Source: Syntrophaceae bacterium (GTDB lineage Bacteria > Desulfobacterota > Syntrophia > Syntrophales > Smithellaceae). Taken from it: a stretch of DNA of 46,179 nucleotides. This document shows, one piece after another, positions 3,761 through 46,072 of the stretch. Made by a program: the position numbers and the translations under genes. The DNA is taken from positions 1 through 46,179 of the forward strand of contig PLGI01000137.1 of the NCBI GenBank assembly GCA_003139775.1. Direction: 5' to 3'. Position 1 is the stretch's first letter, and each line of letters begins with the position of its first letter. The notes below the pieces were generated by a model. It was not told where the DNA came from. It was given only the letters and a program-made list of their open reading frames with translations, and did no database searches.

Positions 3761-5020
3761 ATGAAAAGGCGTGTCGTTGTAACAGGTCTTGGGGCGTTGA
3801 CCCCCCTGGGAAATTCAGTTAGTCAATCATGGGAAGGCGCCATTACAGGTAAATCCGGTATTGGTCCGATTACCAAATTTGATTGCAGTTCTTATAAAAC
3901 AAAAATTGCCGGCGAAATAAGAAATTTTGATCCGATGCAATTTGTCAACAAACAGGAAGTCCGCCGCTACGATGATTTCATACTCTATTCTCTCGCGGCT
4001 TCAGAAATGGCTATGACTGACGCGAAATTGACGATCAGTCCGGAATTTTCTGAGCATGCCGGTGTAATAATCGGTTCTGCTATTGGCGGCTTATCAACAT
4101 TGGAATGCGAACTAAAAAACTTGTTAGGAGCGAATCCCCGTAAAATTTCTCCCTTTGCCGTTCCGTCAATTCTTGCCAATTTAGCTTCCGGTCACGTCTC
4201 TATTCGATTTGGAGCTAAGGGTCCCATAAATTGTGCCGTTACCGCTTGCGCTGCGGGAACATCGGCAATAGGCGATGCTTATAAGACTATTGCCTATGGA
4301 GATGCCGATGTAATGATTACCGGTGGTGTTGAAGCGGCGATAACACGGTTAGCCGTAGGCGGCTTTGGTGCCATGCGGGCGCTGTCGGTGCGAAACGATG
4401 AACCGCAGAAAGCCAGCCGGCCGTTTGATAAAGACCGTGATGGTTTTGTTATCGGGGAGGGTTGCGGTATAATTATTCTGGAAGAATTATCATTCGCTCT
4501 CAATAGAGGCGCGCGTATTTACGCGGAACTTGCCGGTTATGGGTGCACATCCGACGCTTTTCACATGGCCGCCCCGCCGCCCGGGCACGAAGGCGCCGCC
4601 CGCAGTATGCGAATTGCAATAAAAGATGCCGGTTTAAATCTCGAAGATGTCGATTACATAAACGCTCACGGCACATCAACGCCTCTAAATGATTTATATG
4701 AAACTCAAGCCATCAAATTTCTCTTTGGAGAACACGCCCAAAAGCTCATGGTCAGTTCCACAAAGTCTATGACCGGCCACATGCTGGGAGCGACGGGAGG
4801 AGCGGAAGCCATTTTCGCGATTAAAGCTTTACAGGAAAGCATCATCCCGCCCACGATTAATCTGGATAATCCCGGCGAAGGATGCGATCTTGATTACGTG
4901 TCTAAAGTTGCCCGGCACAAAGAAATAAATACAGCCATGTCCAACACTTTTGGTTTTGGCGGCGTCAACGCTGTTTTATTATTTAAGAAATATAGTGAGT
5001 CCCAAGTTTCAGAAGCGTAG
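3761..5020 (+). CDS. fabF: 3-oxoacyl-ACP synthase II (KAS II)
   Basis: Condensing enzyme that elongates acyl-ACP with malonyl-ACP. The N-terminus RRVVVTGLGALTPLGN, the active-site Cys in TACAAGTSA, His in NAHGTSTPLND, and Lys/His in KSMTGHMLGATGG are all present. Length 419 aa is normal. The ribosome-binding site is weak (TAGGAT), so translation is probably coupled to acpP. The stop codon TAG lies in the loop of the first hairpin of a downstream repeat array, so the last few residues appear to be encoded by the repeat. Confidence 0.97.
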   Translation: MKRRVVVTGLGALTPLGNSVSQSWEGAITGKSGIGPITKFDCSSYKTKIAGEIRNFDPMQFVNKQEVRRYDDFILYSLAASEMAMTDAKLTISPEFSEHAGVIIGSAIGGLSTLECELKNLLGANPRKISPFAVPSILANLASGHVSIRFGAKGPINCAVTACAAGTSAIGDAYKTIAYGDADVMITGGVEAAITRLAVGGFGAMRALSVRNDEPQKASRPFDKDRDGFVIGEGCGIIILEELSFALNRGARIYAELAGYGCTSDAFHMAAPPPGHEGAARSMRIAIKDAGLNLEDVDYINAHGTSTPLNDLYETQAIKFLFGEHAQKLMVSSTKSMTGHMLGATGGAEAIFAIKALQESIIPPTINLDNPGEGCDLDYVSKVARHKEINTAMSNTFGFGGVNAVLLFKKYSESQVSEA

Positions 5021-5412
5021 CGCGCTGAAATTTGTTGGACGAACTATCCTAGGAGCGAAGCGACGTAGGATAATGAGCATTTCTTGATATACCAGGCGCA
5101 TAGTGCCATAGTAAAACGAATCCCGACGAGTCGGAATGAAGTTTCTCCCTGCCCCTTAAGGTGGCGGGATAATTCGCTCTAAGATTTTCCGAGTACTACG
5201 TTTCGGAAAATCAAGGCTCATAAAAGCGTTAGTCGTAATGAGACTCAAATTGCATAAGCTTAGCGTAATGAAATTTGTTAGTCGAATTTTCCAATAACCT
5301 TTAGTTATTGAAAATTATCCCGCCAGAGGTGGAGACAGTGAGACTCAAATTGCATAAGCTTAGCGTACTGAAGTTGTCTGGTCGAACTATCCTGCGTTAG
5401 CAGGGGTTGAAG
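5004..5412 (+). repeat. Modular hairpin array between fabF and glyA
   Basis: This roughly 430-bp gap has no credible gene. It is a chain of short inverted repeats joined by recurring linkers. Linkers include GTAATGAGACTCAAATT, GTCGAATTTTCC and GGATAATTCGC. Hairpins include TCCTAGGAGCGAAGCGACGT-type, a CCAATAACC/GGTTATTG-type, ATTTTCCGA/CGGAAAAT and CCAGGCGCATAGTGCCATAG. Two near-identical units starting GAGACTCAAATTGCATAAGC occur about 100 bp apart. The first stem starts inside fabF, and the array ends about 45 bp before the glyA start. Confidence 0.85.
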
Positions 5413-14327: not shown

Positions 14328-14483
14328 TACCAAGTTGCTTTCAAATATTAAGATATGAATTTTTGAAAGCTTACTTGGTATTATGCCAAATCAATCAACT
14401 TTAATGAAACTCAGATATTACAAGCGAAGCACGGTAATATCTGTAAGTTGAATTATCCCACATGCGAAGCTTAGTGGGACTAT
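14328..14483. repeat. Inverted repeat and hairpin array, part 1
   Basis: An inverted repeat ATACCAAGTTGCTTTCAAA...TTTGAAAGC/ACTTGGTAT at 14328-14383 is followed by the array TTTAATGAAACTC, AGATATTAC/GTAATATCT with loop AAGCGAAGCACG, AAGTTGAATTATCCCA, then CCCACATGCGAAGCTTAGTGGG. The same modules occur at 21050-21130 and 25830-25915. Confidence 0.85.
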
Positions 14484-14489
14484 CTTATT

Positions 14490-14700
14490 GTCTGATACCT
14501 AATTGGTATAAATACCCTGAAGGGCGCCATGGGGTTACTATAGGCGCAGCGGAATTGATAAGTTGTAATGAGACTCGCTGAAAACGAACGGAGTGAAGTT
14601 TGAGGCGTTAGTCGAATTATCCCGCGAAGCGGAAGGTAATGAGACCCAAGCTCTGGAAACAAAGTGCACCGAAGTTTGCAGGTCGAATTATCCCGAATAA
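14490..14700. repeat. Hairpin array, part 2
   Basis: Two further units with the linkers TAATGAGACTCG, GTAATGAGACCCAAGCT and GTCGAATTATCCCG are seen (twice each), with loops AACGAACGGAGTGAAG and AAACAAAGTGCACCGAAG. The dyad ATACCCTGAAGGGC at 14512 is embedded. The 512-bp gap between the two flanking minus-strand genes is entirely repeat material with no coding evidence. Confidence 0.85.
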
Positions 14701-14758
14701 GTGGGATATAGTAACCAGCAGTTTGCTGCGAAATGTCTCCAAAGCTTGTTTCGGGGTT

Positions 14759-24164: not shown

Positions 24165-24304
24165 GAACCACAAAGCAAGCTGCTGGGTATTATATATAGT
24201 CCCACTTAGCTTCGCACGTGGGATAATTTCCAATAGCCTTTGGCTATTGGATAATTCGACTAACAAACTTTAATGCGCTTCGCTTTTAAAGTTTGAGTCT
24301 CATT
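24165..24304. repeat. Hairpin array after the TPM gene (minus orientation)
   Basis: A compact, clear example: CCCACTTAGCTTCGCACGTGGG hairpin, linker ATAATTTCC, CCAATAGCC/GGCTATTGG hairpin with TTT loop, linker ATAATTCGACTAA, CAAACTTTAA/TTAAAGTTTG hairpin around TGCGCTTCGCTT, linker AGTCTCATTA. It is preceded by GGTATGAACCACAAAGCAAG, as near 20870. Confidence 0.9.
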
Positions 24305-25827: not shown

Positions 25828-25916
25828 TTAATGAAACTCAGATATTACAAGCGCAGTACAGTAATATCTGCAAGTTGAATTATCCCACGTGCGAAGCTAA
25901 GTGGGACTATATTAGT
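25828..25916 (+). repeat. Hairpin array overlapping the 3' end of the Nudix gene
   Basis: TTTTAATGAAACTC, AGATATTAC/GTAATATCT hairpin with loop AAGCGCAGTACA, AAGTTGAATTATCCCA, then CCCACGTGCGAAGCTAAG/TGGG hairpin. The Nudix stop codon lies at its right edge. Confidence 0.88.
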
Positions 25917-28000: not shown

Positions 28001-28083
28001 CTAATGAGACCCAAGCTTCAGAAACTTAGTGAACTGAAGCTTGAAGGTCAAATTATCCCACGTGCGAAGCTAAGTGGGACTAT
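28001..28083 (+). repeat. Hairpin array after tRNA-Sec
   Basis: CTAATGAGACCC, AAGCTTCAG/CTGAAGCTT hairpin with loop AAACTTAGTGAA, GGTCAAATTATCCCA, CCCACGTGCGAAGCTAAG/TGGG hairpin, then GACTATATATGATA. The same modules as near 20950-21130 reversed. Part of an 800-bp gene-free region between DUF3343 and the PilT-like gene. Confidence 0.88.
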
Positions 28084-31451: not shown

Positions 31452-33596
31452 ATGAAATATAAAGATTGCCAACACAAAGATAAAAAGAAGAAACCCAAAT
31501 ACAGCGAAAATGTATGGGTGCGGGAAGTTTTCAGCAATGGCCAGCAATCCCTGCAAAGCATTATTGGAAGCTCTCCTATTCCCGCGTTTATAATCGGGAA
31601 GGACCATCTGATTATCTACTGGAATAAGGCTCTGGAAGAACTAAGCGGAATCAAGTCCGAAGAGGTGGTAGGTACCGGACAGCAATGGAGGGCATTTTAT
31701 AAAAGCGAAAGACCCTCCATTGCCGATTTGCTAGTCGATGGATTTCAAAAAGAGATACGCCATTGGTATGCCGGTAAATTCATCAAGTCAAAATTGATTG
31801 CCGGCGCCTATGAGGCTACCGATTTCTTTCCTGAACTTGGGAAAAAGGGACGATGGCTGCGCTTTACCGCCGCCGTTATCCGGAATTCCAAAGGCGCCGT
31901 TATTGGAGCGGTAGAAACGCTTGAAGATATAACTCAGGCAAAAAGGGCGGAAGAGGCGTTATTGAAAGCTCATGAAGATCTGGAAATTAAAGTAAAAGAA
32001 CGCACGCATAAATTGGCGAAAACCAACAAAGCCTTAAAAGAGACTACAGATCATTTGTCCCTTATCCTCGAGTTCCTTCCTATTGTTTCCTATACCTGTA
32101 ACGCCGATGAAAATTTAACGATTACTTTTGTCAGCAACCGCATCAAAGAAATTACCGGATACACGCCTGAACAATTCACGAACGATCCGACTTTTTGGCA
32201 GAAGCACATCCATCCTGACGAACAAAAAGAGATACTCAAAGAGTTGAAATCGGCCACGCACAAAGGAACTTACAAGTTCGAGTATCGTTTTCAGGCGGCC
32301 GACGGTTCTTATCGCTGGTTTTCCGATCATCGCCGTTTGATCAAGCCGGGCAATCGTTCCCGAAGATATATGGTTGGCGCCTGGCAAGATATAACTGAAA
32401 ACAGGAGAGTTCGTCAGGAGGGGGAACTCCGTATGCAACAGATGATTCAATCCCATAAATTAAAAGCCCTCGGTGAAGTTGTAACGGGAGTCGCCCACGA
32501 AATAAACAATCCGGTTAGTTTTATTGCCAACAACATTCCTCTCTTGGAAGAAATGTGGACTGCCGTGGAACCGATTCTGGCCAGCGATGGAGCCTCTCAT
32601 CCGGATTGGGGTGATAAAGGTATCAGTTATGTGGAAGTCTGTACAAATATGAAAGAAATTATTGAAGAGTTCAAAATAGCTTCCCAACGCATCAAGCGTG
32701 TCATTACGGGACTAAAAGAATTTGCCCGGGTGGATGAAACAGTACAAAAGAAACCGATTCAAATTGAGGAAGTCATTCAGGGAGTTCTGATTATTGTCGG
32801 CGCTCAGGTTCGTAAAACTGTCTCCCGCATCGACCTTTATATAGACAGCGGTTTGCCCACCATTCAGGGACATTTTCAAAAAATCGAGCAGGTAATCGCC
32901 AATCTGCTGATTAACGCGCATCAATCTATTACGCCCGACAGAAAAGGAAGAATAATTATTACTGTAAGAAATATCGAAAGATTGAACGCAATTCTGATCG
33001 AAATTGAAGATAACGGCATCGGTATGAAAAAAGAAGTGCTGGATCATATTTTTGAGCCTTTCTTTACGACTCGCCGGGATCGGGAAGGAACGGGTCTTGG
33101 GCTTTCCATTTCTTATGGACTAATCAAAGAGCATCGGGGAATAATAGGGGTTACTTCCCGTCCCGATATCGGCAGTCGGTTTTTCATCTACCTTCCTTTA
33201 GACGCTAAAACACAAATAAATATTAGTCCAGCCATACTTTGCTGTGATAGTGATGCCTCTTATCTCAATGAACTTAAAATGAGTTTTGTTGATGTTATTG
33301 ACTGGTGCTGCGGTTCTAATGATACCTCCGAAGATGTCATTGCCTATCTGGAAACCCATCCGGAGGTGGATATTTTTATTTCGGAAATCAAACTGCCGGC
33401 AATGAACGGATGGAAACTCACGAAGAAAATCAAAGAACGTTTTCCTCTTCTGTCCGTAATTCTTTACTCATCCGACCCCCTGTCCGAGAAACAAGAAGGA
33501 AGGATAGCCGACAAACCGGATTATCTGCTTAAGAAACCTTTCAGTATGCTGCAATTACAAAATATAATTCGTGAAATGGGAAGGCAGAGATTATGA
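31452..33596 (+). CDS. PAS-PAS sensor histidine kinase with degenerate C-terminal receiver
   Basis: 714 aa, apparently cytoplasmic with no membrane helix. Domains: PAS 1 (~35-165) of an unusual type with IIYWNKALEELSGI, QQWRAFYKSERPSIADLLVD and RWLRFTAAVIR; coiled-coil (~165-200); PAS 2 (~205-320) with PEQFTNDP and YRWFSDHRRLI; HisKA with TGVAHEINNPVSF; HATPase with NLLINAHQSI, DNGIGM and GTGLGLSIS; then a receiver-like domain (~595-714) where the phospho-acceptor position reads ISEIKLPAMNG, giving Glu not Asp. PAS 1 closely resembles the three PAS copies at 44090. It overlaps the activator gene by 4 bp, forming a two-component pair. Confidence 0.92.
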   Translation: MKYKDCQHKDKKKKPKYSENVWVREVFSNGQQSLQSIIGSSPIPAFIIGKDHLIIYWNKALEELSGIKSEEVVGTGQQWRAFYKSERPSIADLLVDGFQKEIRHWYAGKFIKSKLIAGAYEATDFFPELGKKGRWLRFTAAVIRNSKGAVIGAVETLEDITQAKRAEEALLKAHEDLEIKVKERTHKLAKTNKALKETTDHLSLILEFLPIVSYTCNADENLTITFVSNRIKEITGYTPEQFTNDPTFWQKHIHPDEQKEILKELKSATHKGTYKFEYRFQAADGSYRWFSDHRRLIKPGNRSRRYMVGAWQDITENRRVRQEGELRMQQMIQSHKLKALGEVVTGVAHEINNPVSFIANNIPLLEEMWTAVEPILASDGASHPDWGDKGISYVEVCTNMKEIIEEFKIASQRIKRVITGLKEFARVDETVQKKPIQIEEVIQGVLIIVGAQVRKTVSRIDLYIDSGLPTIQGHFQKIEQVIANLLINAHQSITPDRKGRIIITVRNIERLNAILIEIEDNGIGMKKEVLDHIFEPFFTTRRDREGTGLGLSISYGLIKEHRGIIGVTSRPDIGSRFFIYLPLDAKTQINISPAILCCDSDASYLNELKMSFVDVIDWCCGSNDTSEDVIAYLETHPEVDIFISEIKLPAMNGWKLTKKIKERFPLLSVILYSSDPLSEKQEGRIADKPDYLLKKPFSMLQLQNIIREMGRQRL

Positions 33597-35301: not shown

Positions 35302-35331
35302 CTTTCCTATTATTGAAAGGAAAGAGTTGTG

Positions 35332-35790
35332 ATGAAAGCTTTTACCGCAAAACTTGTCGATTTAACTCAAAAAAACGCGGAAGCAATCGCCATGCAATGG
35401 GCAAGGGATGTAAAAACTAACGAAAAAACTTATGCCTATCATGAGGCATCTGAGGACAAGATTATTCATCAAGCTAAAGATTTTTACAATAACTTTCAAA
35501 TGATGTTTCTTAATGAATCACCATATGAACAAGCGGAAGAAATTTTCGAAAAGTACGCGGAGGAAAGATACAGGGAAGGAATCCCCCTGCATGAAGCACT
35601 GTATGCCCTGATTTTAATGCGGAGGCATATGTGGTTATACGCGGAATTTCAAGCTATGTTTAATGCAGAGGTAGAGCACCGGCAGGCGGTGGGAAGTCTC
35701 AGCCGTACAATTCTTATGTTCGACTACATTATATATGTTGTTGCCAGAAAATTCTGGAAATTAATGAAACTGGAGTTTATGGCGATATAA
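35332..35790 (+). CDS. RsbRD N-terminal-domain protein 1
   Basis: 152 aa from ATG 35332, with AAAGGAAAGAG upstream. It matches the RsbRD N-terminal domain (a helical, globin-like sensor fold seen on RsbR-type stressosome proteins) but lacks the STAS partner domain. The conserved core is ALILMRRHMWLYAEFQAMF and SRTILMFDYIIYVV. It is a paralogue of the protein at 45554 and lies directly downstream of a sigma-54 promoter, 41 bp before atpD. I infer a sensory or regulatory role connected to the ATPase region; direct function unknown. Confidence 0.78.
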   Translation: MKAFTAKLVDLTQKNAEAIAMQWARDVKTNEKTYAYHEASEDKIIHQAKDFYNNFQMMFLNESPYEQAEEIFEKYAEERYREGIPLHEALYALILMRRHMWLYAEFQAMFNAEVEHRQAVGSLSRTILMFDYIIYVVARKFWKLMKLEFMAI

Positions 35791-35819: not shown

Positions 35820-37591
<1,772 letters not shown>

Positions 37592-37596
<5 letters not shown>

Positions 37597-37780
37597 TAAT
37601 GAGACTCTCTGAAAAGGAGCGAAGTGAATAACCTAAAGGTCACTGTAGGTTTGAAGTGTAAGTCGTAATGAGACTAAAATTTCAGAAGCAAAGCGCAATG
37701 AAGTTTTTTAGTCGAATTATCCAATAGCCAGAGGCTATTGGAAATGACCCCAGGAGCGCAGCGACGCGGGATGAATAGGG
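37592..37780 (+). repeat. Hairpin array inside the atp operon (atpC-atpQ)
   Basis: TAATGAGACTCTCTGAAAAG, loop GGAGCGAAGTGA interrupted by ATAACCTAAAGGTCAC, GTCGTAATGAGACTAAAA, stem with loop GAAGCAAAGCGCAATG, TAGTCGAATTATCC, CCAATAGC/GCTATTGG hairpin, then ACCCCAGGAGCGCAGCGACG. The 228-bp gap separates atpC from atpQ. Ordinary N-ATPase operons are tightly packed. Confidence 0.88.
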
Positions 37781-37824
37781 AAAGGAACTTAAAACGTAGA
37801 ACATCTCCAGGAGAGTAAATAAAT

Positions 37825-38163
37825 ATGGTTGAAATAAAACGAACACCGGAGACGCGCCGACAGAAAATTGCGGATCGTTTTGCCGAACAGATGGCTAGAA
37901 AAGAGGCACTGCGGCTCAGGGGCCTCCGTCATAAAGGCGAGACTGTCTGGTTCGGATTGGGCATGTTCGGGATTGTCGGCTGGGCCGTCGCTATTCCCTC
38001 GCTGGTCGGCGTTGCGCTGGGTCTATGGATTGACCGCACCTGGCCCAGTCAATATTCGTGGGCGTTGATGTTTCTTATTGCCGGTGTCATAGTCGGCTGC
38101 ATTAACGCTGCTTATTGGGTGAAAAAAGTTCGCAGTAAAATTATTGAGGATGATGATGAATAA
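37825..38163 (+). CDS. atpQ: N-ATPase AtpQ (AtpI-like membrane protein)
   Basis: 112-aa membrane protein specific to N-ATPase operons. It has a charged N-terminal region (TPETRRQKIADRFAEQMARK), then two hydrophobic helices (FGLGMFGIVGWAVAIPSLVG and SWALMFLIAGVIVGCINAA) with an intervening GLWIDRTWPSQYS. A role in assembly or ion supply to the c-ring is proposed for the AtpI/Q class. CAGGAGAG precedes the ATG. The stop overlaps atpR. Confidence 0.9.
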   Translation: MVEIKRTPETRRQKIADRFAEQMARKEALRLRGLRHKGETVWFGLGMFGIVGWAVAIPSLVGVALGLWIDRTWPSQYSWALMFLIAGVIVGCINAAYWVKKVRSKIIEDDDE

Positions 38164-38467
38164 CTTTATTAACATGAATATGGCCGTCATTTTGGCAGCG
38201 GATTTTTTTGCGGGCATGGTGCTGGGAGCGTTTTATTTTATAGGACTGTGGCGGACTGTGCGGCAGTTGCCATCCATAAAAAGTCCCGCATACCTGCTGC
38301 TTGGAAGTTTAATTTTAAGGATGGCAGTGGTGATGGCGGTATTTTATTTTATTATGGGAACAGGACATTGGGAGCGACTGGCCTCGGCCATGTTGGGATT
38401 TATTATTACAAAAAAGATTTTAACATATCGATTAGGACCGCAAAACGCGGTGGAAACTGTTAACTGA
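38156..38467 (+). CDS. atpR: N-ATPase AtpR
   Basis: About 103 aa from ATG 38156 (GAGG 6 bp upstream). A second small membrane protein typical of N-ATPase operons, with three hydrophobic helices (MAVILAADFFAGMVLGAFYF; YLLLGSLILRMAVVMAVFYF; LASAMLGFIITKKIL). AtpR proteins are thought to assist c-ring or Na+-related assembly. The gene overlaps atpQ by 8 bp and precedes atpB. An earlier ATG at 38150 is also possible. Confidence 0.88.
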   Translation: MNNFINMNMAVILAADFFAGMVLGAFYFIGLWRTVRQLPSIKSPAYLLLGSLILRMAVVMAVFYFIMGTGHWERLASAMLGFIITKKILTYRLGPQNAVETVN

Positions 38468-38511
38468 ATAAACTCGGGTGGGCAACATTCGCCGCCGCAT
38501 GGAGATTCCAT

Positions 38512-39237
38512 ATGGAAGTTGTGTCTCTCAATCAGATCAGTCCGGACCAGGTTATAATATGGAGTTGGTGGTTTATCACCATCAATGTGACAATGCTCTA
38601 TACTTGGCTCGTGATGGCAATCCTTGTAGTCGGTTCCTGGTTGGTTACGCGTAACCTCTCGACGGAGATGAACGCATCCCGTTGGCAGCATTTTCTGGAA
38701 GTGATTATTTCCATCATCAGGAATGAAATTAGAGAAATGACCAAAAGAGGAGCGGATAGCTATATCCCTCTGGTCGGAACGCTTTTTCTTTTCATTTGCG
38801 TCTCCAATGTTCTGGTGATTGTGCCGGGATTCGTCGCCCCTACTTCCTCTATTACTACAACAGCGGCACTGGCCACATGTGTTTTTATCGCTGTTCCCTT
38901 CTACGGCATATCCCGCATCGGCTTTGGTCATTATCTGAAGGAATATTTTCAACCCACTTTCATCTTTTTTCCGTTCCATGTCATGGGAGAACTTTCCAGG
39001 ACACTCGCTCTGACAGTGCGGCTTTTCGGCAATATAATGAGTCATGAAAAAGTCATCGGGATACTGCTGGCGGTTACCCCTTTCCTGTTCCCCGTTGTCA
39101 TGCAGGTCCTGGGGCTTTTGATCGGTGTAATTCAGGCCTACATTTTTGCGATACTTTCCATGGTTTATATAGCCTCAGCGCTCAGCGCCGAGGATGATTA
39201 TCCGAAAGAAGTAAAAGAAGAAGGCTCTACAGCCTAA
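38512..39237 (+). CDS. atpB: N-ATPase subunit a
   Basis: 241-aa integral membrane subunit a forming the ion half-channels. Seen: several hydrophobic helices and the family core GELSRTLALTVRLFGNIMSHE, whose LTVRLFGN arginine is the essential stator Arg facing the c-ring. Its length and LTVRLFGN motif are normal for the family. GGAGAT precedes the ATG. atpE follows after 26 bp. Confidence 0.95.
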   Translation: MEVVSLNQISPDQVIIWSWWFITINVTMLYTWLVMAILVVGSWLVTRNLSTEMNASRWQHFLEVIISIIRNEIREMTKRGADSYIPLVGTLFLFICVSNVLVIVPGFVAPTSSITTTAALATCVFIAVPFYGISRIGFGHYLKEYFQPTFIFFPFHVMGELSRTLALTVRLFGNIMSHEKVIGILLAVTPFLFPVVMQVLGLLIGVIQAYIFAILSMVYIASALSAEDDYPKEVKEEGSTA

Positions 39238-39263
39238 ACAATTTGATTAAAGGAGGAGTATTT

Positions 39264-39530
39264 ATGGATAGTGTAAGTTTGGTCGCGATGGCCTCTATTA
39301 TCGGCGCAGGTTTGGCGATTGGTATCGGTGCAATTGGCCCTGGCTTGGGTATGGGACTGGCTATTGCCCAGGCGCTGGCGGCAATAGCTCAGCAACCGGA
39401 TGAAAGGAACTCTCTGACCCGAACACTTTTTGTCGGATTGGCCATGATTGAATCCGTTGCCATCTATTGCTTTGTTATCTCGATGATCCTGATTTTTGCT
39501 AATCCTTTCTGGAGTCACGTTATAAAGTGA
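39264..39530 (+). CDS. atpE: N-ATPase subunit c, ion-site variant
   Basis: 88-aa two-helix c subunit. ATG 39264 is chosen because AAAGGAGGAG precedes it. Helix 1 has GAIGPGLGMGLAIAQAL, and helix 2 has VGLAMIESVAIYCF. The essential ion-binding Glu (E63) and Ser64 are present. At the position aligned with Gln32 of Na+-type c subunits (G-Q-G in Ilyobacter) this protein has Met (M30), and the Thr after Ser is Val. The complete Na+ ligand set is therefore not present. The typical N-ATPase alternative of Glu at that position is also absent. Confidence 0.94.
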   Translation: MDSVSLVAMASIIGAGLAIGIGAIGPGLGMGLAIAQALAAIAQQPDERNSLTRTLFVGLAMIESVAIYCFVISMILIFANPFWSHVIK

Positions 39531-39542
39531 GGGGGATGATCC

Positions 39543-40313
39543 ATGCATATCAACTGGTTTGTTTTTTTAGCGCAAATCTTTAATTTCCTCCTGCTCATGT
39601 ACCTGTTGAAACGCCTTCTTTACGGGCGGATCATCAAGGCTATGGATGACCGGGAAGCAAATATTGCCGCGCGGTTTGCCGAAGCCGAGGAGCTGAAGGT
39701 CAAGGCCAACGAGGAAGCCGAACTCTACGAAAAGCGCAATCAGCTGCTTAACGAAACCAAAGACCGGATGCTCAATGAGGCGACAATGGCCGCTGACGCC
39801 AAGCGCAAGGAGTTGATGGAGAAGGTGCGCGTGGAAGTAGATCAGGTCAAAATACGCTGGCAGGACATGCTGTCGCGCGAGCAGGATGCTTTTTTCTATG
39901 ATTTGCGGCAGCGTGCGGCCAAAGAATTATACGCCACGGCGCGCAAGGCTCTCAGAGATCTGGCGGACGCCGATCTGGAGGAGAGAATTGTCGATGAATT
40001 CTTGCGGCGGGTTAAAGCGCTCGATGAGGAAAAAAGCGTTCAGATGCGCAAAGCGATCAGCGGCGGCGGCAATCGCGTGACCATCCAGAGCGCTTTTGGT
40101 ATTCCCGCCCTGAGGCGGACTCAAATCGAGGAAACCTTGAAAAAGCAGATCACCAATGGTTTTACGATCAACTATTTGCAGCAGCCGGAGATTGTGTCGG
40201 GCATTGAAATGCGGGTGAACGGGCATAAGATCGCTTGGAGTCTCAATGAGTATCTGGAAACTCTGGTGGAGAACTTAACCGAAACTCTACAGAAAGAGGC
40301 ACATGCGGCGTAA
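39543..40313 (+). CDS. atpF: N-ATPase subunit b (long, delta-like C-terminus)
   Basis: 256 aa, longer than usual for b (~160 aa). The N-terminal membrane segment (NWFVFLAQIFNFLLLMYLLK) is followed by a long charged coiled-coil stator region (~30-170). The C-terminal ~90 residues include QPEIVSGIEMRVNGHKIAWS, which resembles the end of delta/OSCP subunits. N-ATPase operons lack atpH, so this extension probably supplies its role. GGGGGATG precedes the ATG. A repeat array follows before atpA. Confidence 0.93.
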   Translation: MHINWFVFLAQIFNFLLLMYLLKRLLYGRIIKAMDDREANIAARFAEAEELKVKANEEAELYEKRNQLLNETKDRMLNEATMAADAKRKELMEKVRVEVDQVKIRWQDMLSREQDAFFYDLRQRAAKELYATARKALRDLADADLEERIVDEFLRRVKALDEEKSVQMRKAISGGGNRVTIQSAFGIPALRRTQIEETLKKQITNGFTINYLQQPEIVSGIEMRVNGHKIAWSLNEYLETLVENLTETLQKEAHAA

Positions 40314-40323
40314 TTACACTCGC

Positions 40324-40434
40324 TGATAATGAGACCCAAGCTTCAGAAACAGAGTGCACTGAAGCTTGCTGGACGAATTATACCAGGCGCGTAGCGCCGT
40401 GGTAAAACTAATGGAATAAAGCGACGCGGGATAA
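40324..40434 (+). repeat. Hairpin array inside the atp operon (atpF-atpA)
   Basis: ATAATGAGACCC, AAGCTTCAG/CTGAAGCTT hairpin with loop AAACAGAGTGCA, GGACGAATTATACC, then ACCAGGCGCGTAGCGCCGTGG, followed by AAGCGACGCGGGAT. It ends ~25 bp before the atpA start. Confidence 0.88.
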
Positions 40435-40461
40435 AAGACGGTGAATAGGCAGGAGGCGAAG

Positions 40462-42030
40462 ATGAATCAAGAAGCGAACCAATTAGAAAGTCAGGAATTG
40501 AAAACCTTCCTGGACGATACGTTTGATACTATGGACAAGGTTCTGGATGATCAAAATCCTGAACTACGGCAATACGAAATAGGTACGGTCAATTTTGTTG
40601 GACGCGATATTGCCAGAGTCGGCGGCTTGCCGCATATTCGCGCGGAGGAACTAGTCCGCTTTGCGGGAAATTATATGGGGCTGGTTTTCAATATCGATCC
40701 GGCGGAAATAGGCGTGATTATGCTGGATCCCAGTGAACATCTGCAAGTGGGTTCGGAAGTGCAGCGTACCAAGCGCGTTCTGGATGTGCCGGTGGGAGAC
40801 GGCCTTTTGGGACGGGTGGTAGATCCTCTGGGCAGACCGCTCGATGGCTTGGGCGAGGTCAATACAGTCATGCGTCTGCCGGTGGAAAGACCGGCGCCTG
40901 CGGTTATGGACCGCGCGCCGGTAGTAGTGCCTTTGCAGACCGGTATTAAAGTTATCGACGCGTTGATTCCCGTCGGGCGCGGCCAGCGCGAATTAATTTT
41001 GGGCGACAGAATGACCGGTAAAACGGCTATTGCCGTGGATACGATCATTAATCAGAAAGAAACGGGGATTATCTCCATTTATTGCGCCATCGGCAAGAAA
41101 AGCGCCGACGTAGCCAGGGTGATTGCCGAACTGCGCGATCACGGTGTGATGGGATCGTGCATCGTGGTAGTGGCCACCGGAGAAGACACTCCCGGTCTGC
41201 AGTTTATCGCGCCTTACGCGGCTACGAGCATGGGAGAATACTTTGTGGAGCAGGGCAAGGATGTGCTGATCATTTATGACGATCTCACATCGCACGCCCG
41301 TGCCTATCGCGAAGTGTCGCTGCTGTTGCGGCGGCCACCGGGACGCGAAGCTTTCCCCGGCGATATATTTTACATCCACTCTCGTCTGTTGGAGCGTTCC
41401 ACGCATATGCGGCCGGAATTAGGCGGCGGATCGTTGACATCCCTGCCCATTACTGAAACGGAAGCGCAGGACATGTCGTCTTACATTCCGACCAATCTGA
41501 TTTCCATCACGGACGGGCAGATTTATCTTTCGCCGGTTCTTTTCAGCAAAGGCATTCTGCCGGCGGTTGATGTCGGCAAATCCGTATCGCGTGTGGGCGG
41601 CAAAACGCAATTGCCCGCGTATCGTTCCGTGGCCGGCGATCTGCGCTTGTCCTACTCGCAATTTGAAGAACTGGAATCCTTCTCCCGCTTCGGGACCAGG
41701 CTTGATGAGAGTACCCGCAAGATTCTGGAACGCGGTTGGCGCGTGCGTGAAATTCTCAAACAGGGGCAGTACAAGCCTTTGCGAGCTTCTGAGCAGATTG
41801 CCAGTCTGCTTTCCGTGACCGGCGGCGCGCTGGATAAGGTGCCGACGGAAAAAATCCGCGAAGTGGAACGTGTTCTGCTCGAAGCGGTCAATCAGGAATT
41901 GCCGGAATTGTGCGAACGCATCGAGTCCGGGAAAAAACTGGAAATGAGCGATCGCGACAACGTTATGGAGAAAATCAAACCGGCCATTGCGCCGTTTGAA
42001 GAAGTCGAGGAAGCAAATGCAAACAACTGA
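40462..42030 (+). CDS. atpA: N-ATPase subunit alpha
   Basis: 522 aa from ATG 40462 (AGGAGG upstream; the track's GTG start at 40441 is less likely). Nucleotide-binding alpha subunit. The P-loop reads [11 protein letters not shown], where most F1 alpha subunits have GDRQTGKT, a conservative change at the third P-loop position. The arginine finger region [21 protein letters not shown] and late [12 protein letters not shown] are present. The 3' end overlaps atpG by 14 bp. Confidence 0.96.
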
Positions 42031-42895
42031 GTCCCTGAAAAGAAGAATTAAAAGCGCGGGCGATCTCTTATCGGTGGTCAAAACGATGAAGGCTCTGGCT
42101 GCCGTAAGTATCCGGCAATATCAAAAGGCCGTAGAGTCTCTGGACGATTACAACCGGACTGTAGAAATGGGACTGCAAATTGTGCTCAAGGAACGCTTGG
42201 GAGCAATGTCGCAAAGTAAAAGCAGGGCTGTGAAGCGTTTGGGAGTAATAGTTTTCGGTTCCGATCAGGGGCTGTGCGGACAGCTCAATGAACAGATTTC
42301 CGTCTTCACGCTGGATCATTTCAAAGAAACCGGCGTGAAAAAAGAAAATCGAAAGGTGCTGGCGGTGGGCGCGCGCGTGGCGGATTACGTGGAAGACGCC
42401 GGACAGCCTGTAGATGAGTTGATGGCCACACCAAGCTCCACAGCAGGGATAACGCCGCTGGTTCAGGAAATCATCATGATTATTGAAGAGTGGCATTTTC
42501 GTCAAAACGTTGATCATTTTATGCTGTTTTACAACGATTATGTTAGCGGTGCCAACTATCATCCTTACAAAGTTCAACTGTTGCCAGTAAATCGGGATTG
42601 GCTCAAGGATCTTGCCCGCAAGAAATGGGATTCCAAATCGCTGCCTATTTTCCGGATGGACTGCCATAGGCTTTTTTCATCGCTGATCAGAGAATATCTC
42701 TTCGTTTCTCTTTACCGCGCTTTTGCCGAATCGCTGGCCAGTGAAAACGCCAGCCGTCTGGCTTCCATGCAGAACGCGGAAAAGAATATTGAAGAGCAAA
42801 TGCAGGATCTGCACGTGCAGTTCCACCGTACGCGTCAGATGACTATAACCGAAGAACTACTGGATATTGTTGCCGGCTTTGAGGCGTTGAGTTAA
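42017..42895 (+). CDS. atpG: N-ATPase subunit gamma
   Basis: 292-aa central-shaft subunit from ATG 42017, with GAGGAAG upstream and a start inside atpA. The N-terminal helix [24 protein letters not shown] and the C-terminal helix [20 protein letters not shown] (with the typical [16 protein letters not shown]) are diagnostic. Completes the atpDCQRBEFAG set; there is no atpH. Confidence 0.94.
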
Positions 42896-42936: not shown

Positions 42937-43800
42937 ATGGCAGTAGAAATGCACATTTGTGGTATTTGCGCGTGGCGCAGGGAATGTCAAAAAAAGTTTA
43001 AAGTTAGAACGGATGGATTTATAGGAAGCCATTGTCCTGATTATACAAGGGACTTGTCTTTTAAGCCTACGGCCTCGGATGAAGCAGAAGATGAAAAAAC
43101 GATCATGGATCGGATGGTTCAGCAGCAATTGGAAAAGTGGCGTAAACTGTTGGATAAAGTTTTGAAACAGGGAGTTAAAATAGAGAATTTCCAGGGTGGT
43201 CCGATAATCACTATTTCTAGAGAACCGGGAAGCGGAGGAAGTGAAATTGCAAGACGGCTGGCCAAGGCATTAGGTATGGATCTGATAGGCGGCCAAATTA
43301 TTCAACACGTTGCTGACAGCGCTAAGATGAGCAGAAGAGTAATCGAATCTCTTGACGAAAAAGAAGTAACATTTCGAGACACCCTGCTCATGTCTTTGTT
43401 TGGGGAAAGCCGTCCCTGGCCGTCGGAATACTTAAAGCATCTAACTCGAGTGATAGGGACTATTGGAGCTTTCGGCAATGTAATTATTGTTGGCAGAGGA
43501 GGGAATTATGTTCTGCCGCGAGAAAAGACATTCAAGGTCAGAATAATTGCTCCTCTGGAATTAAGAATTAAATATTTTATGGATGACCGTAAATATACGA
43601 GAGTTGAAGCGGAACAATATGTTGTCAAAACAGAAAATAACCGCAAAGCATTCATACGGAAATATTATAATGCCGATGTTGCTGATCCCCAATACTATGA
43701 TATCACAATAAACACGGAGAGAATATCAATGGGAGCAGCAACTGAATCAATTATTTCGGCTTTCAACCAAAGAAGGAATCGAAAGCGAAGCGAATCCTGA
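42937..43800 (+). CDS. Cytidylate-kinase-like protein with Cys-rich N-terminus
   Basis: 287 aa from ATG 42937 (AGAAAGAAGGTG upstream). The C-terminal domain is of the Cytidylate_kin2 type: TISREPGSGGSEIARRLAKAL is the P-loop, with IIVGRGGNYVLPRE and DPQYYDITINTE later. The N-terminal ~35 residues contain four cysteines (CGICAWRREC...CPDY), perhaps a zinc- or Fe-S-binding site. The substrate is unknown; in this family the nucleotide kinase activity is usually unproven. It follows atpG by 41 bp, at the end of the ATPase operon. Confidence 0.82.
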   Translation: MAVEMHICGICAWRRECQKKFKVRTDGFIGSHCPDYTRDLSFKPTASDEAEDEKTIMDRMVQQQLEKWRKLLDKVLKQGVKIENFQGGPIITISREPGSGGSEIARRLAKALGMDLIGGQIIQHVADSAKMSRRVIESLDEKEVTFRDTLLMSLFGESRPWPSEYLKHLTRVIGTIGAFGNVIIVGRGGNYVLPREKTFKVRIIAPLELRIKYFMDDRKYTRVEAEQYVVKTENNRKAFIRKYYNADVADPQYYDITINTERISMGAATESIISAFNQRRNRKRSES

Positions 43801-44089: not shown

Positions 44090-45484
44090 ATGAAAAGAAA
44101 AACGGTTGAAAAAATTGACGCTGTTGGAAGCGTCAAGGCCGCAAAAGGAAAACGCGGGATCTCGGATACATCCAAGGAATCAGCCCACCTGCTTCACAGC
44201 ATAGTCCAGGGCTTTTCCATCCCCGCCTTTGTCATCGGAGTAAATCATAAGATAATATACTGGAACCGCGCCCTTGAGCGGATGACGAATATTCCCATGA
44301 GCGAGGTGGTCGATACCAACCAACACTGGCGAGCTTTCTATGCCAGCGAGAGGCCCTGCATGGCAGACCTCCTCGTCGATGGTGCCGAGAACCGGATTCC
44401 CAAATGGTATGCCGGGAAATACCGCAAATCAGAACTTCTGGAAGAGGCTTACGAAGCAACAGATTTTTTCCCTGATCTCGGCGAAAAGGGGCGCTGGCTG
44501 CGCTTCACGGCCGCGCTGATTCGACAAGCTAACGGTAATATTGTCGGTGCGATTGAAACTCTGGAGGACATTACCGAACGCATGACTGCAGAACTTACGC
44601 GGCACGAAAGCGAGCAGCAGGTCTTCAGCATCATCGAAGGGTTGCCTATTCCGACCTATGTCATCGGTCTCGATCACAACGTGATTTACTGGAACCGAGC
44701 TCTGGAAAAATTGAGCAAGATCCCTGCTAAAGATATGATCGGTACAAATCAGCATTGGCGCGCTTTCTACGCCAGTGAGAGGCCCTGCATGTCTGATCTG
44801 GTCGTCGATCAGACCATGGAAACCATCCCGGAATGGTATGGGGGCGTCGCCAAATCAAAACTGTTAGAAGACACCTACGAGGCGGAAGGATTTTTCCCCG
44901 ACCTGGGAGACAAAGGGCGCTGGCTGCGGTTCACTGTGTCGCCCCTCCATAGTTCCCGTGGCGCCATCGTCGGTTGTATCGAGACGCTGGAAGATATTAC
45001 GGAGCGAGAATTGACGGAACGGATCATCTTCGACAGCGAAAGGATTCTGCACAGCATCCTTGAGGGATTTTCAATTGCCGCTTTCGTCATCGACAAAAAC
45101 CATAAAATTCTTTACTGGAACCGGGCATTGGAAAAACTGACGAGAGTGAAGGCCGCCGATGTTAGAGGGACCGATCAACAATGGCGGGCCTTTTATAAAA
45201 AGGCAAGGCCCTGCATGGCCGATATGCTTGTTGATAGTGCTCTTGAAAAGGTTCCCCAATGGTATTCCGGAAAATATCAAAAATCAGATCTCATCGAAGA
45301 TGCCTATGAGGCAACGGATTTCTTTCCCGATCTGGGGGATAGTGGGTGCTGGCTCCGGTTTACAGCCGCTCTCATCCGGGATTTTCAGGGAGAACTTATT
45401 GGGGCTGTTGAAACGCTGGAAGACATCACAGAACAGAGGCTAGCTGAAGACGCTCTGAAACGAAAGGGCAAGAGCGCGTCATAG
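44090..45484 (+). CDS. Triple-PAS protein without output domain
   Basis: 464 aa consisting of three tandem PAS domains (~30-165, ~170-305, ~310-450) that are close copies of one another and of the first PAS of the kinase at 31452. Each copy has WNRALEK/WNRALER, (H/Q)QWRAFYxxxRPCM, a FFPDLG box and ETLEDITE at its end. There is no kinase, GGDEF, HTH or methyl-accepting domain, and no membrane helix. It ends in a short basic tail. It is probably a cytoplasmic sensor or adaptor. AAGGAGGG precedes the ATG. GC content looks higher than that of the neighbouring kinase-like gene. Confidence 0.88.
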   Translation: MKRKTVEKIDAVGSVKAAKGKRGISDTSKESAHLLHSIVQGFSIPAFVIGVNHKIIYWNRALERMTNIPMSEVVDTNQHWRAFYASERPCMADLLVDGAENRIPKWYAGKYRKSELLEEAYEATDFFPDLGEKGRWLRFTAALIRQANGNIVGAIETLEDITERMTAELTRHESEQQVFSIIEGLPIPTYVIGLDHNVIYWNRALEKLSKIPAKDMIGTNQHWRAFYASERPCMSDLVVDQTMETIPEWYGGVAKSKLLEDTYEAEGFFPDLGDKGRWLRFTVSPLHSSRGAIVGCIETLEDITERELTERIIFDSERILHSILEGFSIAAFVIDKNHKILYWNRALEKLTRVKAADVRGTDQQWRAFYKKARPCMADMLVDSALEKVPQWYSGKYQKSDLIEDAYEATDFFPDLGDSGCWLRFTAALIRDFQGELIGAVETLEDITEQRLAEDALKRKGKSAS

Positions 45485-45553: not shown

Positions 45554-46072
45554 ATGACAACAACACAGACATCAAAGATGATTGAGACGATCGAGTATAA
45601 AGCCCAAGACATTGCCGAACAATGGTATAAGAATGTGAAGATCAACCCTAAAACGCCCATTTTTCATAACATGCCCCAGAACGAGGCCATAGATCTGGCT
45701 CTGAATTTCCTCAGCAACTACAGGAAACTTTTCAATACGGATAAACCATTTGAGGAGGCCAATGTCCTTTTCTCCAAGTATGCTGTGAATTTCTATAATA
45801 AGCATATCCCGCTTCCCCAGGCTATCTACTCTCTCATCCTGATGAGACGCCATATGTGGCTGTTTGCCGAGTACCAGGCAGTGTTCGAAACAGCCGTCGA
45901 GCAGCGTCACGCCCTGGAAAGCCAGAGCCGTATGATTCTCATGTTCGATTACGCCGAGTATGTTGTCATTCTGACCTATGACGACCTGATTAGAAATGAA
46001 ATCGAAGACAAGTTTAAAGGGTTGAAAGTCAAAAGCCCGTTTTTTGTTCTCTGGCCTGGTGGCGGACTGTAG
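45554..46072 (+). CDS. RsbRD N-terminal-domain protein 2
   Basis: 172-aa paralogue of the RsbRD-like protein at 35332, sharing the conserved core LILMRRHMWLFAEYQAVF and SRMILMFDYAEYVV, plus the upstream QWYKNVK/QWARDVK region. It again lacks a STAS domain. AAGGAAGGAG precedes the ATG. It follows the triple-PAS gene by 69 bp, and the two paralogues bracket the ATPase operon. Function unknown; it is likely a sensor or regulator. The remaining 107 bp to the window edge contain no recognisable gene. Confidence 0.8.
   Translation: MTTTQTSKMIETIEYKAQDIAEQWYKNVKINPKTPIFHNMPQNEAIDLALNFLSNYRKLFNTDKPFEEANVLFSKYAVNFYNKHIPLPQAIYSLILMRRHMWLFAEYQAVFETAVEQRHALESQSRMILMFDYAEYVVILTYDDLIRNEIEDKFKGLKVKSPFFVLWPGGGL

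What the first reader, a model, noticed from the sequence alone, without database searches (positions are those of the whole stretch)
39264..39530. N-ATPase c subunit lacking the Gln/Glu32-type Na+ ligand
Aligned by GIGPGxGxG, the residue at Gln32 of the Ilyobacter/Propionigenium site is Met30 here. The essential Glu63 and the following Ser64 remain, but the Thr after it is Val65. N-ATPases characterised by sequence usually have Gln or Glu at position 32. Loss of two ligands makes Na+ specificity doubtful and hints at an H+-coupled N-ATPase, which matters for a syntroph living near the thermodynamic limit.
Basis: partly seen in the sequence, partly recalled or inferred. Interest (0 to 1): 0.7.

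Follow-up and report, generated by a model that had tools for sequence, protein, structure and literature searches.

The report
Proton-type rotor in a syntroph N-ATPase
A second rotary ATPase in a Syntrophales bacterium, of a kind usually annotated as a sodium pump, has lost two sodium-holding residues of its rotor and is most likely a proton machine; the loss is real and shared by a whole family of relatives, but proton-driven members of this ATPase class were already known.

Summary
Window 39264-39530 encodes an 88-aa N-ATPase c subunit inside an intact N-ATPase operon (35832-42895). Against the Ilyobacter Na+ site it has M30 for Q32, E63 for E65, S64 for S66, V65 for T67 and Y68 for Y70. 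Two Na+-site residues are replaced by apolar ones, and no nearby polar residue substitutes.

Met30 is not an error. It occurs in 42 of 76 other Syntrophia-class N-ATPase c genes (nearly fixed in the window's family) and arose independently at least three times, once outside the class. It is seen only where the Thr67 site is already Ile, Val or Leu. That Thr is missing in 75 of those 76 genes, so its loss is class-wide.

The genome's other two c genes also lack the Na+ set. No Rnf/Nqr or decarboxylase Na+ pump was found, and the one membrane pyrophosphatase has the K+-independent (H+) lysine. By published criteria this is an H+ site.

An H+-coupled N-ATPase is already known (Burkholderia pseudomallei c17 ring), so the concept is not new. 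New here are a fully apolar 32/67 pair and its recurrent, lineage-wide fixation. Coupling is inferred, not measured.

The parts
35832..37226 (+). N-ATPase beta subunit (atpD)
   Evidence: TIGR03305 alternate F1F0 beta, 820.5 bits over cut-off 752
37219..37596 (+). N-ATPase epsilon subunit (atpC)
   Evidence: TIGR03166, 145.3 bits over cut-off 100.1
37825..38163 (+). AtpQ/AtpI-type small membrane protein
   Evidence: TIGR02230 ATPase_gene1, 116.7 bits over cut-off
38159..38467 (+). AtpR, small membrane protein typical of N-ATPase operons
   Evidence: TIGR03165 F1F0_chp_2, 78.4 bits over cut-off; exact start not established
38512..39237 (+). N-ATPase a subunit (atpB), conserved Arg in ...LALTVRLFGN...
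   Evidence: TIGR03306 altF1_A, 307.9 bits over cut-off
39264..39530 (+). N-ATPase c subunit (atpE) with M30/E63/S64/V65/Y68 at the ion site
39351..39353 (+). ATG codon of Met30, at the Gln/Glu32 ligand position
39450..39458 (+). codons Glu63-Ser64-Val65: essential carboxylate, retained Ser, and Val in place of Thr67
39543..40313 (+). N-ATPase b subunit with long C-terminal part (256 aa)
   Evidence: TIGR03321, 252.4 bits over cut-off
40441..42030 (+). N-ATPase alpha subunit (atpA)
   Evidence: TIGR03324, 802.8 bits over cut-off
42017..42895 (+). N-ATPase gamma subunit (atpG)
   Evidence: TIGR03323, 356.9 bits over cut-off

Best explanation
This is a complete N-ATPase whose c-ring has become a proton-type ring. 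In the Na+ site, the inner-helix Gln/Glu32 and the water-holding Thr67 supply oxygens to the ion; here they are Met and Val. The ring keeps the essential Glu63, the Ser64 hydroxyl and Tyr68, which suffice to hold a protonated glutamate in the closed form. Shown: the sequence, the residue equivalence, conservation, repeated independent origin of Met, and the genome context. Inferred: that the ring binds and carries H+, that Na+ does not compete at physiological levels, and that the enzyme works as an ATP-driven H+ pump and/or as a second ATP synthase with its own H+/ATP ratio, alongside the housekeeping F-type enzyme(s). The likely evolutionary order is loss of Thr first (class-wide Ile), then Gln to Met in the window's family.
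For: Operon complete and all subunits pass N-ATPase-specific models. Met30 aligns with E. coli Ile28 and Ilyobacter Gln32. No polar residue lies on that face of the inner helix (A23, P26, G27, M30, A33, I34). Met in 42 of 76 class loci, with Ile at the 67 site in all 42. Three independent Met origins forced by well-supported branches, each on an aliphatic-67 background. The two other c genes of the genome are Ile/Leu with ESI/ESV. No Rnf/Nqr or OadB/GcdB; the one mPPase has GNTFKA with Lys, the mark of K+-independent H+-PPases. Literature: aliphatic at 67 in all predicted H+ enzymes (PMC2359735); hydrophobic sites are H+ sites (PMC3692424); an N-type c-ring measured as H+ specific (PMC5376962). 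Arthrospira c-ring 2wie keeps the Gln but has E-A-L and is a known H+ ring (alignment; coupling from general knowledge).
Against: No labelling, transport or structure for this protein. The sequence-based Na+ prediction failed for B. pseudomallei, which shows that sequence rules are fallible, although in the direction of over-calling Na+. Ser64, Tyr68 and the backbone carbonyl at 61 remain, so weak Na+ binding with water ligands is not excluded. No a-subunit residue changes together with Met30 in both Syntrophia origins tested, so there is no independent mark of a switch in the stator.
Confidence: 0.86

Rival explanations
1. The ring still binds Na+ with fewer protein ligands: Glu63, Ser64, the carbonyl of residue 61 and extra water take the place of Gln32 and Thr67.
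For: Glu63, Ser64 and Tyr68 are retained; the enzyme belongs to a family first described as Na+-translocating.
Against: Na+ needs about five to six oxygens in a dry membrane site; Met adds none and takes the space. The loss coincides with an aliphatic 67 site in all three origins. The genome lacks the primary Na+ pumps searched for.
Confidence: 0.06
2. The enzyme is promiscuous, carrying H+ mainly and Na+ when Na+ is high or pH is alkaline.
For: Known Na+ rings also carry H+ when Na+ is absent (PMC2359735).
Against: That source says H+ enzymes do not translocate Na+; the substitutions move the site towards H+ preference.
Confidence: 0.05
3. Met30 is neutral drift in a site already committed to H+ by the earlier loss of Thr67; it has no effect of its own. 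(This concerns the meaning of Met30 and does not exclude the best explanation on the coupling ion.)
For: 75 of 76 class loci already lack Thr; Met appears only on aliphatic backgrounds; no matching change in subunit a.
Against: Met is nearly fixed across the family and arose repeatedly, while other apolar residues (Leu, Ile, Val, Ala) were not seen at this site in the N-ATPases read; this hints at constraint.
Confidence: 0.4

Closest known systems
Burkholderia pseudomallei N-type ATPase c17 ring (PMC5376962)
   Same: N-type operon and c subunit; H+ specificity was measured there and is inferred here; the 67-equivalent is not Thr/Ser (Met63)
   Different: It keeps a second carboxylate (Glu30) at the Gln32 position and has Thr62 beside Glu61; here that position is Met30, with Ser64 and Val65. 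Ring size is unknown here.
Ilyobacter tartaricus Na+ F-ATP synthase c11 ring (1yce, 2wgm)
   Same: Fold; essential Glu, Ser66 and Tyr70 equivalents present
   Different: Gln32 replaced by Met30 and Thr67 by Val65
Fusobacterium nucleatum two-carboxylate Na+ c-ring (PMC3692424)
   Same: The usual N-ATPase site (E..EST..Y) outside the Syntrophia resembles it
   Different: The window protein lacks both Glu32 and Thr67
Escherichia coli H+ F-ATP synthase c ring
   Same: Apolar residue (Ile28) at the position of Gln32
   Different: Uses Asp61 and lacks the Ser and Tyr; different ATPase family

Membership tests
N-ATPase (alternate F1F0 ATPase) | Subunits score over N-ATPase-specific curated models | tested here: met
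   TIGR03305, 03166, 03165, 03306, 03322, 03321, 03324, 03323 all over cut-off
N-ATPase (alternate F1F0 ATPase) | Operon order beta-epsilon-Q-R-a-c-b-alpha-gamma, no delta gene | tested here: met
   Nine genes in that order at 35832-42895; no separate delta ORF between them
N-ATPase (alternate F1F0 ATPase) | Subunit b with a long C-terminal extension | tested here: met
   256 aa, TIGR03321; feature stated in PMC4154653
N-ATPase (alternate F1F0 ATPase) | Present in addition to another rotary ATPase | tested here: met
   Two further F-type c genes in the genome; their other subunits were not examined
Na+-translocating rotary ATPase | Gln or Glu at position 32 | tested here: not met
   Met30
Na+-translocating rotary ATPase | Polar residue at position 67 | tested here: not met
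   Val65; rule from PMC2359735
Na+-translocating rotary ATPase | Glu65, Ser/Thr66 and Tyr70 | tested here: met
   Glu63, Ser64, Tyr68
H+-coupled N-ATPase (B. pseudomallei type) | c-ring labelling by NCD-4 insensitive to low Na+, stopped at pH 9 | not testable with these tools
   Needs protein
H+-coupled N-ATPase (B. pseudomallei type) | c17 stoichiometry | not testable with these tools
   Needs a purified ring or a structure

The most novel reading that the evidence does not exclude
In one family of Syntrophales, N-ATPases have become a distinct proton-coupled lineage with a fully apolar site at positions 32 and 67, selected repeatedly. If the ring is as large as the known N-type c17 ring, the enzyme would work at a pmf of about 90 mV and give these syntrophs a second, low-gear ATP synthase or proton pump near the thermodynamic limit.
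Probability: 0.25. Interest if true: 0.65.

Novelty: new variant of a known kind. Interest (0 to 1): 0.4.

Why it matters
Genomes are routinely annotated as having a sodium pump when an N-ATPase operon is found. Here almost a whole class of bacteria carries N-ATPases whose rotor lacks the Na+ set, and one family has lost it most fully, so that annotation is probably wrong for them. The three states E/Q + Thr, E/Q + aliphatic and Met + aliphatic form a natural series in one enzyme lineage, which would make a clean experimental test of which ligands set ion choice in rotary ATPases. For syntrophs it raises the question of why a cell with little energy keeps two proton-coupled rotary ATPases.

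Tried and rejected
Relocated ligand: many M-type relatives have Gln two residues later (GMGQA), but it lies on the other face of the helix and the window has Leu there, so it cannot replace Gln30. Sequencing error or pseudogene: rejected, since the site is conserved in many relatives and all nine genes are open. Co-change in subunit a: columns were compared for both Syntrophia Met origins; differences separate the families by descent, and none changed in both. Correlation test of Met with aliphatic 67 on the tree: only three independent pairs, too few for significance. Dibrova 2010, the paper that defined N-ATPases, is not held. Search of plasmids: only partial-length hits, 43-50% of the query in the rows listed and none covering 80% of it, so not used. 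A structure prediction was not run, because it would give a lone hairpin without coordinates and could not show the inter-subunit site. The first regular-expression passes missed variants such as GPALG and were replaced by a profile search. A first alignment with three rows on the wrong strand was discarded and redone.

Full report
WHAT IS THERE. The stretch 39264-39530 (+) encodes an 88-residue subunit c preceded by a good ribosome site. It scores 150.9 bits against TIGR03322, alternate F1F0 ATPase subunit c, cut-off 130.85. It sits in a nine-gene operon, beta-epsilon-Q-R-a-c-b-alpha-gamma, at 35832-42895. Every gene passes the model specific for this ATPase type or its accessory protein, and there is no delta gene. 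This matches the published locus definition: no delta, atpR present, b with a long C-terminal part (PMC4154653). So this is a genuine and apparently intact N-ATPase.

THE SITE. Recalled sequences of I. tartaricus and E. coli c were first checked against the PDB copy: E. coli c matches 1a91 letter for letter over 1-79, and the Ilyobacter sequence matches 1yce over its full length. In the alignment M30 falls on Ilyobacter Gln32 and E. coli Ile28; E63 on Glu65/Asp61; S64 on Ser66; V65 on Thr67; Y68 on Tyr70. In Na+ rings the ion is held by residue 32, Glu65, Ser66, the carbonyl of residue 63 and a water that touches Thr67 (PMC3692424). The window protein therefore keeps the carboxylate, Ser and Tyr and loses the oxygens of residues 32 and 67. 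The other inner-helix residues on that face (A23, P26, G27, A33, I34) are apolar.

HOW COMMON IS IT. In the window's class, 76 of 155 genomes carry an N-ATPase c over the cut-off. All of these other than the window were read: position 32 is Met in 42, Gln in 29 and Glu in 5 of 76 loci (one genome has two), and the 67 site is Ile or Leu in 75 and Thr in 1. Among the 80 nearest named genomes of GTDB the counts are Glu 61, Gln 14, Met 5, with Thr at 67 in 39. In samples of other groups Glu dominates and Thr at 67 is kept in most: 36 of 48 in the rest of the phylum, 13 of 16 in Pseudomonadota, 12 of 15 in Cyanobacteria and 25 of 29 in the Planctomycetota sample. Met recurs only in two genomes of that last sample, as TPALGMG with ESL.

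HISTORY. On trees of subunits a and b, with c left out, Met needs three separate gains, and well-supported branches force all three: the window's family, a pair in another Syntrophales family (L032, L033), and the pair L308/L311. Each lies on a background where the 67 site is already aliphatic. Within the window's family Met is nearly fixed; three members keep Gln (L009, L014, L016). The likely order is Thr to Ile first, then Gln to Met. With three events this order is suggestive and not statistically established. No a-subunit column changes with Met in both Syntrophia origins.

GENOME CONTEXT. The genome (listed as 100% complete) has three c genes. The other two carry Ile or Leu at position 32 and ESI or ESV, so none has the Na+ set. 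No NQR2/RnfD/RnfE protein and no OAD-beta decarboxylase subunit were found. The one membrane pyrophosphatase reads GNTFKA, with the Lys that marks K+-independent H+-PPases (rule in PMC9408878; the motif position was assigned from general knowledge). Other possible Na+ pumps and antiporters were not searched.

MECHANISM. [quoted passage not shown] Cyanobacterial rings keep Gln at 32 and lack the Thr, and are H+ rings (alignment; coupling from general knowledge). The best reading is a proton-type ring: a protonated Glu63 held by Ser64 and Tyr68 in an otherwise apolar pocket. Whether Met30 itself tunes the site or drifted in after commitment to H+ is open; the fact that Met, and not Leu, Ile or Ala, recurs argues for some constraint. 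An illustrative estimate: for a phosphorylation potential of 50 kJ/mol, a c17 ring (H+/ATP 5.7) balances a pmf near 90 mV and a c10 ring near 155 mV. The ring size here is unknown.

NOVELTY. H+ coupling of an N-ATPase has been measured in B. pseudomallei, c17 ring, site Glu30/Glu61/Thr62/Met63/Tyr66 (PMC5376962). What I did not find described, in searches limited to open papers, is an N-ATPase c site that has lost the residue-32 polar group, or the lineage-wide pattern reported here. I rate it a new variant of a known kind. A genome in the set with one contig of 3,179,300 bases (L004) matches from memory the size of Syntrophus aciditrophicus SB; if so, that model syntroph has Glu at 32 with ESI, and would be a practical test organism.

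LIMITS. All conclusions on the coupling ion rest on sequence and context. Trees are quick searches with a single-matrix model.

Noticed in passing
window 4993-5068, 5236-5311, 5336-5411, 14402-14477, 14637-14712, 25829-25904, 28002-28077, 37666-37741, 40327-40402: An interspersed repeat family of about 76-100 nt (TAATGAGACYCAAR...GTCGAATTATCC...) with nine + strand copies in the window; two copies lie inside the N-ATPase operon, between epsilon and Q and between b and alpha. Further pieces occur on the - strand, e.g. 24242-24261. Looks like a REP/MITE-like intergenic element.
   Followed up: partly
L001:1300-1731 (G000 C108) and L003:345-722 (G000 C46): The genome has two more c-subunit genes with signal-like N-termini, both of H+ type. 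The C108 copy has no subunit a gene within the bases held around it and is followed by a sensor-like membrane protein, so it may be a lone c gene.
   Followed up: partly
window 44090-45484 and 31784-31936: A protein of three tandem PAS repeats (copies about 64-76% alike in DNA) lies just downstream of the N-ATPase operon; a related copy of the unit lies in the histidine kinase at 31452-33596, upstream.
   Followed up: partly
window 35329-35790 and 45554-46072: Two paralogous-looking small proteins (about 153 and 172 aa, sharing a LILMRRHMWL.AE.QA.F stretch) flank the N-ATPase/PAS cluster; the first has a sub-threshold HisK_N match.
   Followed up: no
window 42937-43800: A cytidylate-kinase-like protein (PF13189) directly follows the gamma gene, 41 bases downstream on the same strand.
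   Followed up: no
L308, L311 (Planctomycetota-phylum sample): Independent Met at the same c position with TPALGMG and ESL, and Trp after the glycine (GMGWA).
   Followed up: partly
L269 (G355 C44): An N-ATPase c with Glu at 32 but Ala at the Ser66 site (EAT) and Cys in place of Pro (GCALGEG), in a genome with a second, normal N-ATPase c.
   Followed up: no
L250, L252, L253: Pseudomonadota N-ATPase c genes with the ETM site, the same as reported for the H+-specific B. pseudomallei ring.
   Followed up: no
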